Assembly: GCF_000211415.1 (NCBI RefSeq)
Contig: NZ_GL890775.1
Coordinates: 164,894-228,893 of the forward strand
Direction of reading: 5' to 3'
Length of the DNA stretch: 64,000 bases
DNA from: Enterobacter mori LMG 25706
GTDB lineage: Bacteria > Pseudomonadota > Gammaproteobacteria > Enterobacterales > Enterobacteriaceae
Shown: positions 7,350 to 61,045 of the stretch, one piece after another
Numbering within the stretch: the first letter of the stretch is position 1
How the letters are laid out: each line of letters opens with the position of its first letter
Notes under the pieces: model-generated
What the model saw: only the letters and a program-made list of their open reading frames with translations
The model's database searches: none
What the model was told of the DNA's origin: nothing
Position numbers and translations under genes: made by a program

Positions 7350-7842
7350 ATGCCATCTTTCGATATTGTTTCCGAAGTTGATATCCAGGAAGTGCGTAAC
7401 GGCGTGGATAACGCCAGCCGTGAAGTTGAGTCACGTTTCGATTTCCGTGGCGTTGAGGCGACGTTTGAACTGAAACGACGCAAATAAGACCACTAAGGTG
7501 CTGAGCGAGTCTGATTTCCAGGTCAATCAGCTGCTCGACATTTTGCGCGCCAAGCTGTTAAAGCGCGGCATTGAAGGTACCTCGCTGGACGTGCCGGAAG
7601 AGTTTGTCCACAGCGGCAAAACCTGGTTCGTGGAAGCGAAGCTGAAGCAGGGCATTGAGAGCGCGGTGCAGAAGAAGATCGTGAAGCTCATCAAAGACAG
7701 CAAGCTGAAGGTGCAGGCGCAAATCCAGGGCGAAGAGATTCGTGTGACCGGGAAATCTCGCGACGACCTGCAGGGCGTGATGGCGCTGATCCGCGGCGGC
7801 GATCTGGGACAGCCGTTCCAGTTCAAAAATTTCCGCGATTAA
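7350..7842 (+). pseudogene. yajQ: YajQ nucleotide-binding protein, disrupted by a +1 frameshift
   Basis: YajQ is a small nucleotide-binding protein; its Xanthomonas relative binds cyclic di-GMP. The reading frame opens at the ATG at 7350 ([11 protein letters not shown]) after a strong AAGGGAGAAG site, runs about 42 codons to VEATFEL, then shifts. One extra A in the AAA at 7473-7475 sends translation to a TAA at 7485-7487. Removing it restores [17 protein letters not shown] and a standard 163-residue protein ending QFKNFRD at 7842. The downstream part is fully conserved, so the change is recent or is a sequencing error. Whether the gene is dead in the organism cannot be decided from this sequence. 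Confidence 0.9.
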
Positions 7843-41230: not shown

Positions 41231-42652
41231 TTATACCAGGCTTCGTTTAATCGCGGGCGTGGTTTTGTTCAGGGCGAGCCACAACGGCTTGATTCTCAAT
41301 AACGCTTGCTCGAGTTCTTCCGGTTCAAGTGAGAAAGGCATACGCAAATAGCGATCAAATGCCCCTGAAAGACCGAACCGCGTGCCGGTCCCCATGTTGA
41401 TCCCAATCGTCTCAGCCCGTGCGGCGAGCTGCGTTGCCAGCATCCCCGGCAGTTCAATCCACTACGAAAGCCCGCCTTCGGCTTCATGGAAGGTCCAGTC
41501 CGGGAAATGCTCGCGCAGGAGTTCCCCGCACTTGTTCCGTCGTTCCACCAGCATTTTCCGGCGAGTGGGCAAAAAGGTGTCGCTGTTTTCGATAAGCCAC
41601 AGCGTTGCCAGCTGTTCCAGCAGAGGGGAGCCGAGGTCCAGCGTATCGCGCGCCTGAGCGAGCGCCGAGATGGTGCGTGAAGAGGCGCGGATCCAGCCGA
41701 GACGCAGGCCACCCCAGAAGCTTTTCCCGGCAGAGCCCAGCGTAATCACCGCCGCCCCAGGATTAAACGCTGCCAGAGGGGGCGGCGGCGGCGCATCAAA
41801 CCAGAGATCGAGCATGGTTTCGTCCACGACCAGCGTGGTACGAGTCCGCGCGGCGATGTCGGTGATCGTCTGACGCGTTGCAGCGTCCATACAGCGTCCC
41901 GTTGGATTATGAAAATCCGGCATCAGGTAGGCCAGGCGCGGGGACGTTTGGGCAAGCGTTGCCGCGAAACCGTCGGTATCCCAGCCGCTTTCAGGCAGTG
42001 ATACGCCTACCGGTCGGCAGAGTGCCCCCTGAATAGCGGCGATCGCCAGCGGGTAGGTTGGATGGTCGACGACGATGCGATCGCCTGGCCCGGTCATCAT
42101 GCGCAATACCAGCGCAAAGCCGCTGACGGCACCATTTACGACCATCACTTCGTCTGCCCGCGTTGGCAGCCCGCGCGCGGTATAGCGTGCGGCAATGGCT
42201 TCCCGCAGCGCGGGCAACCCGAGCTGGTCATAGCCCGTCAGCGCAAGGTGCTGGGTAATCGCCGTCAGCGCATGGGTATACGCCTGATGGATTTCGGGCC
42301 CGGCGTTGAGTGCGGCGGTGGACAGGTCCAGCGCCGCGCTGGCCGCGGAAAGCGTCGGTACCGCGCGGGTATCCGGCAGGATCACGCGTGAGCCGCTGCC
42401 GTGGCGACTTTCCAGATAACCCTCTTCCCGCAGATGGGCGAGCGCGCTGCCAACGGTGGTTCGGCTGACGTTTAGCGTACTGGCTAATTCCCTCTCACCC
42501 GGTAGCCGCGTATTCAGCGCCAGTCTGCCATCCAGAATAAGCAGACGTAACGCATCGGCCAGCTGACGCCACAGCGGCGTACGCGATGAGGATTGTTGCC
42601 AGTGGCCTAAAAGACGTGCCAGAGACTGGCTTCCGAAACGACGAGATGACAT
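41231..42652 (-). pseudogene. yczR: YczR, MocR-family (GntR/aminotransferase) regulator interrupted by an amber codon
   Basis: MocR regulators fuse a GntR winged helix to a fold-type I aminotransferase-like PLP domain. Here the winged helix (PLWRQLADALRLLILDGRL to VSRTTVGSALAHLREEGYLE) and most of the PLP domain are intact, including the lysine in LGSAGKSFWGGLRLGW. At 41464-41462 the codon after GGLS is TAG (often Leu in relatives), followed by WIELPGMLATQLAARAE and 70 further in-frame residues to a TAA at 41231. One base change explains it. If read as a stop, about 76 C-terminal residues are lost. The start at 42652 is tentative; ATG 42688 is possible. It is divergent from yczE, its usual target. 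Confidence 0.85.
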
Positions 42653-42657
42653 ATGCA

Positions 42658-42679
42658 GTCCACTATTTAGAAACTGGAC
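42658..42679. promoter_or_regulatory. Candidate YczR operator
   Basis: GTCCA and TGGAC half-sites separated by 12 bases lie between divergent yczR and yczE. The placement fits an autoregulatory operator, but the motif is not verified. Confidence 0.35.
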
Positions 42680-42738
42680 ATTAATCATAGAGCCATTTTG
42701 ACCCAATATGAAACTCTGGTTCACTGGAGAAGATAAAA

Positions 42739-55887: not shown

Positions 55888-59037
<3,150 letters not shown>

Positions 59038-59056: not shown

Positions 59057-60250
59057 TTAAGACTTGGTTTGTTCTGACTGACCAGCGGCTGAAGCTTGTT
59101 GTTTATCGTCAGACTTCACTTCCTGTGCTTTAACCTGCGCGCCAGGACGAACTTTTTGCAAACCAGTGATAATCACGCGATCGCCATCTTTCAGACCTTC
59201 CGTCACCAGCCATTTATCGCCAATCGCCTGCGTAGCAGTGATATTGCGGGTTTCGACTTTGTCATCAGCCCCGACAACCAGTGCGCTCGCATCGCCGCGT
59301 GGCGTACGGGTCACACCCTGCTGTGGAACCAGAAGTGCGGTTGGATTCGTCCCTTCTTCCAGACGCGCGCGAACGAACATACCAGGCAACAGCGTGTTGT
59401 CCGGGTTCGGGAAAATCGCACGTAAGGTGATGGAACCGGTGGTCTGGTCGACCGTCACATCAGAGAATTCCAGTGTGCCTGACTGTGGGTATTTGATACC
59501 GTCATTGGTCACAAGCTCCACTTTGGCTTTGCCGTTTTCCTGTTGCAGCTTGCCACTTGCGAGCTCTTGCTTCAGACGCAGGAAATCATTGCTGGACTGT
59601 GTGACGTCAACGTAGATCGGATCAAGCTGCTGCACGGTAGCCAGCGCCGAGGCCTGACCGTTCTGCACCAGCGCCCCTTCCGTCACGGAAGATTTACCAA
59701 TACGACCGCTGATAGGGGAGGTCACTTTGGTGTAGGCCAGGTTAATACGCGCGGTTTCGACGGCGGCTTTCGCGGCAACGACGGCAGCGTTGGTCTGCTG
59801 TGCATCCGCCAGCGCAGTATCGTAATCCTGTTGACTGATGTACTGCGTACCGAGCAGTTTTTTATAGCGGCTCAGCGTGAGCTGGGAGATTTTGGCTGCA
59901 GCTTCAGCTTTCGCCAGATCGCCTTTCGCGCTTTCATAAGACGCCTGATAGGTTGCTGGATCAATCTGCTACAGAGACTCACCGGCTTTCACATCACCGC
60001 CTTCCGTGAAGTTACGTTTCAGGATAATACCGCTCACCTGAGGACGCACTTCCGCAATGCGGTAAGCACTCGTACGGCCTGGTAATTCTGTGGTGATTTG
60101 TAGAGGTTCAGATTTGAGCGTCACAACGCCTACTTCTGGCGCCTGCTGAGCTCCTTGTTGAGCCGGTTTGTCGTCACATCCTGTTAGCGCTAAGCTGCCT
60201 GAGAGCATCAGAACGACCGCCAGAGGCGTTAACCCTCTGTTTTTGTTCAT
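59057..60250 (-). pseudogene. acrA: AcrA membrane fusion protein, interrupted by an amber codon
   Basis: AcrA is the periplasmic lipoprotein adaptor joining AcrB to TolC. The frame opens at 60250 (MNKNRGLTPLAVVLMLSG; lipobox Cys25) and would give a standard 397-residue protein. Codon 94 (59971-59969) is TAG, where E. coli has Tyr in VSLYQIDPATYQ; here it reads GESL-stop-QIDPATYQ. The rest of the frame, with the hairpin, lipoyl and beta-barrel parts (TSPISGRIGKSSVTEGALVQ, LLPGMFVRARLEEG), is fully conserved to 59057. One substitution explains it. A 93-residue fragment lacks all docking parts. Suppression, recent inactivation or a sequence error are the options. Confidence 0.92.
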
Positions 60251-60391: not shown

Positions 60392-61045
60392 ATGGCACGA
60401 AAAACCAAACAACAAGCGCTGGAAACCCGACAACACATTCTGGATGTGGCGATTCGTTTGTTCTCTCAGCAGGGTGTGTCATCAACCTCGCTGGCGCAGA
60501 TTGCTCAGGCCGCGGGCGTCACGCGGGGAGCGATTTACTGGCATTTTAAAGACAAGTCAGATCTGTTTGGTGAAATCTGGGAGCTTTCAGAATCCAACAT
60601 TAGCGATCTAGAGACTGAGTATCGGGCAAAATTCCCCGACGATCCACTCTCAGTATTAAGAGAAATTCTAGTATATATCCTTGAAGCAACGGTAGTTGAA
60701 GAACGTCGCAGGCTAATGATGGAAATTATTTTTCATAAATGCGAGTTCGTGGGCGAAATGGCGGTCGTCCAGCAGGCGCAGCGTAGCCTGTGTCTGGAGA
60801 GCTATGACCGTATCGAACAGACGCTAACGCAATGTATTCAGGCAAAAACATTACCGGCCAACCTGCTGACGCGACGCGCCGCCATCCTGTTACGTAGCTA
60901 TGTCTCCGGGCTGATGGAGAACTGGCTATTTGCGCCACAATCTTTTGATCTTAAAAACGAAGCTCGTAGCTACGTCGCCATTTTGCTGGAGATGTTGCAA
61001 TTTTGCCCGACGCTGCGTGACGAAACCCACTCCGTTCCTGCCTGA
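60392..61045 (+). CDS. acrR: AcrR, TetR-family repressor of acrAB
   Basis: Represses acrAB and itself and releases DNA on binding varied drugs. It has 217 residues starting [20 protein letters not shown]. The helix-turn-helix is [30 protein letters not shown] (about 30-59). The C-terminal ligand domain is intact with [21 protein letters not shown]. The frame is full length, so repression should be normal. It is divergent from acrA over a 141-base region with a palindromic operator. Confidence 0.97.

What the first reader, a model, noticed from the sequence alone, without database searches (positions are those of the whole stretch)
59969..59971. acrA carries an in-frame amber codon while acrB and acrR are intact
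Codon 94 of acrA is TAG in place of the Tyr expected in the LYQIDPATYQ stretch. All 303 following codons are conserved with no other damage. AcrA is essential for AcrAB-TolC efflux, so a real stop would make the strain strongly drug- and detergent-sensitive, an unexpected state with a perfect acrR and operator. Alternatives are amber suppression, a very recent mutation, or a sequence error.
Basis: partly seen in the sequence, partly recalled or inferred. Interest (0 to 1): 0.72.

Follow-up and report, generated by a model that had tools for sequence, protein, structure and literature searches.

The report
Probable sequence error in acrA
The stop codon in the drug-pump gene acrA is really in the deposited sequence, but the same draft genome shows the same kind of stop in genes a cell cannot live without, plus many small insertions, so it is most likely a reading error rather than a lost pump.

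Summary
The TAG at 59969-59971 (acrA codon 94, minus strand) is in the sequence, followed by 303 sense codons. It is private: the 80 named loci kept (of 542 found) and 60 of 60 congeners lack it. It is not isolated. In 1.40 Mb of this 4.96-Mb draft I found five nonsense codons in recognisable genes, each TAG where relatives have Tyr: acrA, a MocR-like regulator, a FhuA/FoxA-like receptor, and secA and leuS, which are essential. A sixth (TGA) is a multi-base change. Nine conserved genes, tolQ and proA among them, carry small insertions and no deletions. The draft has 22 N-runs in 1.0 Mb, no rplB, and an excess of GC-directed missense in conserved proteins. I read the acrA stop as a base-call or assembly error (0.78). 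A real null is possible (0.12). A Tyr-inserting amber suppressor (0.08) is not excluded: I found no tRNA with anticodon CTA, but an 87-base N-run hides the anticodon of one tRNA-Tyr copy. TAG is not depleted as a normal stop, which speaks against long-standing suppression. Raw reads over the codon and over that gap would decide.

The parts
59969..59971 (-). in-frame TAG, codon 94 of acrA
   Evidence: a Tyr codon in 80 of 80 named loci kept; frame open in 60 of 60 congeners
59972..60250 (-). acrA piece before the stop, codons 1-93
   Evidence: matches NCBIfam AcrA NF011604.1 at positions 1-93 of 397
59057..59968 (-). acrA piece after the stop, 303 sense codons and the normal stop
   Evidence: matches NF011604.1 at positions 95-397 of 397
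55888..59034 (-). acrB, 1048 aa, open
   Evidence: two private changes at otherwise invariant columns
60392..61045 (+). acrR, 217 aa, open
41462..42724 (-). MocR-like (YczR family) regulator gene, cut by a TAG at 41462-41464 where the relative has Tyr; the frame stays open beyond it
7350..7842 (+). yajQ, frame broken near 7473 by a one-base insertion relative to the intact congener

Best explanation
The TAG in acrA is most likely a base-call or assembly error in a noisy draft of an Enterobacter genome. The living strain would then have an ordinary acrA gene and an ordinary AcrAB-TolC pump. Shown here: the assembly carries the same kind of stop in genes that cannot be lost (secA, leuS), insertion-only frameshifts in conserved genes, N-runs, no match for the essential gene rplB, and an excess of GC-directed amino-acid changes in very conserved proteins. 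Inferred: that the acrA codon has the same origin. No reads were available.
For: Essential genes: TAG at a Tyr position in secA and leuS (415 + 508 open codons against 880 and 903 in two congeners). Nine inspected coding indels, all insertions relative to the intact congener: yajQ, rna, proA, ampH, tolQ, a NodT-type outer-membrane factor, pqiA, yccS and a gcd-like gene. tolQ is open in 60 of 60 congeners and split here. 22 distinct N-runs in 1,005,192 distinct bases against none in 970,613 bases of G034, overlaps counted. rplB: no match here, one in G034. Completeness 96.82 and contamination 2.87. GC-directed missense in 349 very conserved genes 311 against 192 in reverse, ratio 1.62, while synonymous changes in the same genes give 1.11. 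With G025 as outgroup, GC-directed missense is 122 in this genome against 75 in G034, AT-directed 116 against 108 (sums, recomputed). Among nonsense codons that G-directed errors can make, Tyr-to-TAG is 0.695, so five of five has probability 0.16.
Against: Under uniform error five of five at Tyr-to-TAG has probability about 7e-6, so a biased error must be assumed. Missense by the same class of change, pyrimidine to G, is not raised in the three-way comparison (32 here against 44 in G034), and only 23 more in the two-way comparison (164 against 141) where about 35 were expected with a standard deviation of 17. The overall substitution spectrum of this genome is close to that of G034. No N-run lies in the window itself. 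On contig 9 (398,100 bases) the reference-free scan gave no clear mid-gene TAG. The sequencing method and the reads are unknown.
Confidence: 0.78

Rival explanations
1. A real and very recent nonsense mutation inactivates AcrA. The strain lacks AcrAB-TolC efflux, or an AcrE-like adaptor partly stands in for AcrA.
For: The stop is private and the codons behind it show no decay, as a recent change would leave. The genome has an intact AcrA-like paralogue of 386 aa, 73% identical to the AcrA C piece, with an AcrB-like permease gene directly behind it. One of the 80 named loci (L043) also has an acrA frame that ends early, at codon 165. In Salmonella, AcrE works with AcrD and is described as interchangeable with AcrA (PMC8446912, abstract read).
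Against: It treats acrA as a special case, although the same kind of stop occurs in secA and leuS, where a null is not possible, and although the assembly is demonstrably noisy.
Confidence: 0.12
2. The TAG is real and is read as Tyr by an amber-suppressing tRNA-Tyr, so AcrA, SecA and LeuS are made at full length.
For: Five of five nonsense codons in recognisable genes, the multi-base TGA apart, are TAG at Tyr positions, two of them in essential genes. Two tRNA-Tyr genes are readable here, against three in G034 and in 50 of 60 congeners, while 8 have two, one has one and one has four (counted). An 87-base N-run at C6:446004-446090 lies inside another tRNA-Tyr copy and hides its anticodon.
Against: No tRNA with anticodon CTA among 49 distinct tRNA sequences (the search behind it scored 150 of 188 candidates), nor in a pattern scan that recalls 47 of those 49. 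RF1 is intact. TAG as a normal stop is not depleted: 63 of 628 genes against 67 of 628 in G034, 12 lost and 8 gained. Suppression does not explain the nine insertions, the missing rplB or the multi-base TGA.
Confidence: 0.08

Closest known systems
False stops and frameshifts in draft bacterial assemblies
   Same: Breaks in essential and conserved genes, indels all in one direction, N-runs, a missing essential gene, lower completeness than congeners.
   Different: The nonsense codons are all of one kind (TAG at Tyr), which needs a biased error; the sequencing method is not known here.
Loss-of-function acrA alleles with AcrE as spare adaptor (PMC8446912, abstract read; AcrE with AcrD in Salmonella)
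   Same: An intact AcrA-like paralogue beside an AcrB-like permease gene is present.
   Different: It reaches no NCBIfam equivalog cut-off (613 bits against 765 for AcrA), so the name AcrE is by resemblance; nothing was tested in this organism.
Amber suppressor strains of the supF type (tRNA-Tyr with anticodon CTA; recalled, not taken from a call)
   Same: TAG at Tyr positions, essential genes included.
   Different: No CTA tRNA found, TAG stops not depleted; one tRNA-Tyr copy unread.

Membership tests
Sequence or assembly artefact | breaks also occur in genes that cannot be lost | tested here: met
   secA and leuS; essentiality from established knowledge of E. coli
Sequence or assembly artefact | other marks of a poor draft | tested here: met
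   insertion-only frameshifts in nine genes, 22 N-runs in 1.0 Mb, rplB absent
Sequence or assembly artefact | excess of base changes of the same class at missense sites | tested here: inconclusive
   GC-directed missense is raised but pyrimidine-to-G missense is not clearly raised (32 against 44; 164 against 141)
Sequence or assembly artefact | independent reads disagree with the assembly | not testable with these tools
   no reads available
AcrA (NF011604.1) | both parts match the equivalog at adjoining positions, between acrR and acrB | tested here: met
   positions 1-93 and 95-397; gene order
AcrA (NF011604.1) | one unbroken frame of about 397 codons | tested here: not met
   TAG at codon 94
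Amber suppressor strain | tRNA with anticodon CTA | tested here: inconclusive
   none found, but one tRNA-Tyr copy is hidden by an N-run
Amber suppressor strain | in-frame TAG at one amino acid, essential genes included | tested here: met
   five of five at Tyr; equally expected from a G-directed error (0.16)
Amber suppressor strain | TAG avoided as a normal stop, if suppression is old and strong | tested here: not met
   63 of 628 against 67 of 628 in G034

The most novel reading that the evidence does not exclude
This Enterobacter strain reads UAG as tyrosine through a mutated copy of its tandem tRNA-Tyr genes, the very copy that the assembly fails to resolve. In-frame TAG codons have therefore built up at Tyr positions, even in essential genes (secA, leuS), while UAG still ends about a tenth of its genes.
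Probability: 0.08. Interest if true: 0.8.

Novelty: not a real feature. Interest (0 to 1): 0.25.

Why it matters
If it is an error, it is a warning: this genome is one of the one-per-species genomes held for search, and its acrA, tolQ, proA, secA and leuS would be called broken in any screen for efflux loss or pseudogenes. If the TAG codons are real, the strain would be a natural case of amber suppression in essential genes, and would make it directly testable how a bacterium lives with a stop codon of two meanings.

Tried and rejected
A mutT-type hypermutator was considered after the first two Tyr-to-TAG changes. The substitution spectrum private to this genome (G000) is close to that of G034 (T>G 0.066 against 0.055), so it was dropped. 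A context effect in any reading frame (pyrimidine to G after TA) was rejected: 8 in G000 against 7 in G034.

The first tRNA pattern was badly built, since its shortest gap excludes ordinary tRNAs; one search replaced it. One of the 16 places is a tRNA-Arg(tct); ARAGORN finds no tRNA at the other 15. The protein search with the N piece (510 hits, 120 listed) did not settle whether another record carries this stop.

Rows dropped before counting nonsense codons and frameshifts in G000. First, ORFs whose differences do not favour third codon positions. Second, stops near the start, before or at the likely start codon: maa (residue 37), nfsA (17, Tyr-to-TAG) and ORFs with stops at residues 4 to 18, not all inspected one by one; L206 residue 45, a multi-base change at the start of an ATPase gene. 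Third, stops near the end: L201 residue 172 of 178 and L205 residue 1045 of 1051. Fourth, ORFs judged not to be genes: Tyr-to-TAG at window 40472 (no Pfam match), at L269:14261 (no NCBIfam match) and at L196:3654 (differences not at third positions); Tyr-to-TAA at L254:17013 (no NCBIfam match); the ORF at window 62993 that lies against the large + strand gene there. Fifth, L199:15597, Tyr-to-TAG at residue 8 of an ORF, where G025 also has TAG. Sixth, frameshift flags that are N-runs (dnaX, potG) or lie before the gene start (mtnK). Counting the dropped Tyr-to-TAG rows, one search shows 8 Tyr-to-TAG and 1 Tyr-to-TAA against 0 in reverse.

In the reverse direction G034 also had rows marked coding-like. 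Most lie within the first 42 residues; others are an ORF on L286 at 71 of 137, an ORF on L293 at 69 of 128, the end of acrB, and mirror images of the tolQ and ampH breaks. I set them aside by position and did not inspect each. The Fisher figure (12 against 0) was a rough sum made before the final count and is not relied on.

In one search the scan gave 39 candidates in 1.0 Mb of G000 (6 TAG), 20 on contig 9 (3 TAG) and 30 in G034 (0 TAG). I judged most to be neighbouring genes in one frame from the Met close behind the stop, and followed up six. The 3 TAG on contig 9 were set aside that way.

A species name was looked for: Enterobacter mori was guessed from recall, papers were listed and passages of two read; nothing confirmed it, and no name is claimed. 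Searches for natural amber suppressors gave no paper or nothing usable in the listing. A report of amber suppressors in natural coliforms is recalled, not seen.

Full report
Observation. The window lies on contig 4 of a draft genome of 4,958,591 bases in 23 contigs. The nearest named loci are Enterobacter; no species name is claimed. acrA runs on the minus strand from 60250. Its codon 94 is TAG at 59969-59971, with 93 codons before and 303 sense codons after it. Each piece alone matches the AcrA equivalog, at profile positions 1-93 and 95-397. acrB and acrR are open and ordinary. The position is a Tyr codon in all 80 named loci kept (the best 80 of 542 found), and 79 of those 80 keep the full frame. 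All 60 congeners have an open frame of at least 410 codons. A 96-aa AcrA-like protein from another source (P0062) seems to end at the matching column.

It is not alone. I compared stretches of this genome (G000) with a close complete congener, G034 (aligned blocks mostly 92 to 97% identical). The window holds a second TAG at a Tyr position, in a MocR-like regulator gene, and a one-base insertion in yajQ. Over 1,005,192 distinct bases of contigs 3 and 4 the comparison gave four nonsense codons in recognisable genes, all TAG at Tyr: acrA, the regulator, a FhuA/FoxA-like receptor (L195:3511) and secA (L292:14118). A reference-free scan on hexamer usage recovered these four and added leuS (L200:18253), which lay in a gap between the compared stretches. 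E. coli leuS has Tyr at that place, and two congeners have one open frame of 880 and 903 codons where G000 has 415 and 508. The scan gave 39 candidates with 6 TAG in G000, and 30 candidates with no TAG in 0.97 Mb of G034. The sixth TAG (L275:12052) follows a gene of 696 open codons and was not counted. On contig 9 (398,100 bases) it gave 20 candidates, 3 of them TAG with a Met close behind, which I took as neighbouring genes. One more nonsense codon, a TGA in an ABC substrate-binding gene (L253:11124), differs by several bases from E. coli.

Why error is the best reading. secA and leuS are essential in E. coli (established knowledge), so a TAG in them is either an error or suppressed; a plain null is out. 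The assembly is poor in other ways. The nine coding indels that I inspected are all insertions relative to the intact congener: yajQ, rna, proA, ampH, tolQ, a NodT-type outer-membrane factor, pqiA, yccS and a gcd-like gene. tolQ is open in 60 of 60 congeners and split here. There are 22 distinct N-runs in 1.0 Mb (one search lists 23, one of them twice) and none in 970,613 bases of G034. The essential rplB has no match in G000 and one in G034. Completeness is 96.82 and contamination 2.87, while most congeners show 99 or 100 and 0 or 1. In 658 compared genes, missense changes toward G or C number 1373 against 1146 in reverse. In the 349 most conserved genes they are 311 against 192, a ratio of 1.62, while synonymous changes there give 1.11. 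With G025 as outgroup (130 genes, 48,763 codons) GC-directed missense is 122 in G000 against 75 in G034, AT-directed 116 against 108 (sums). An excess that shows in conserved amino acids and much less in synonymous sites is what base-call errors toward G or C would leave; this step is inference. Among the nonsense codons that G-directed errors can make, Tyr-to-TAG is 0.695, so five of five has probability 0.16.

What speaks against it. Under uniform error five of five has probability about 7e-6. The class of change that makes TAG from a Tyr codon is not raised at missense sites in the three-way comparison, 32 against 44, and only mildly in the two-way comparison, 164 against 141, an excess of 23 where about 35 were expected with a standard deviation of 17. 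The overall spectrum is ordinary. The stops do not crowd near gaps as far as seen: the window has no N, though one N-run ends just before its first base.

The suppressor reading. Suppression by a tRNA-Tyr would explain the pattern, essential genes included. ARAGORN on the tRNA places gave 49 distinct sequences without anticodon CTA. The Rfam search behind it scored 150 of 188 candidates, so a pattern scan was added that recalls 47 of the 49; it found no CTA tRNA. But two tRNA-Tyr genes are readable here, against three in G034 and in 50 of 60 congeners (counted; all matches listed there have GTA, and the list was cut). At the tandem locus an 87-base N-run, C6:446004-446090, lies inside another tRNA-Tyr copy, its anticodon unread. 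Against suppression, RF1 is intact, and TAG ends 63 of 628 genes against 67 of 628 in G034, 12 lost and 8 gained. It also leaves the insertions and gaps unexplained. I give it 0.08.

The real-null reading. If the acrA stop alone were real, an AcrA-like paralogue could partly stand in: 386 aa, intact, 73% identical to the AcrA C piece, with an AcrB-like permease gene behind it. It reaches no equivalog cut-off, so AcrE is a name by resemblance. In Salmonella, AcrE works with AcrD and is described as interchangeable with AcrA (PMC8446912, abstract read). I give this 0.12.

Verdict. The TAG is in the deposited sequence but probably not in the organism. Reads over the codon and over the tRNA-Tyr gap decide. 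Dropped rows, failed attempts and the handling of acrA are told under Tried and rejected.

Noticed in passing
L171:205-291 (own genome, contig 6:446004-446090): An 87-base N-run lies inside a second copy of tRNA-Tyr in the tandem locus, so one anticodon cannot be read.
   Followed up: partly
own genome, whole: No match for rplB (ribosomal protein L2), while G034 has one: an essential gene is missing from the assembly.
   Followed up: no
L043 (Enterobacter sp. EA-1, CP025776.1): The acrA frame in this named genome also ends early, at codon 165; the cause was not examined.
   Followed up: no
P0062: A 96-aa AcrA-like protein from another source that seems to end at the column matching this stop, seen by eye.
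   Followed up: no
window 55888-59034 (acrB): Two private changes at columns invariant in 79 relatives; 13 of those 79 have two or more private changes themselves.
   Followed up: partly
L253:11124 (own genome, contig 4): A TGA inside an ABC substrate-binding gene, differing by several bases from E. coli.
   Followed up: partly
own genome versus G034, 349 conserved genes: GC-directed missense excess of 311 against 192, with a much smaller synonymous counterpart.
   Followed up: partly
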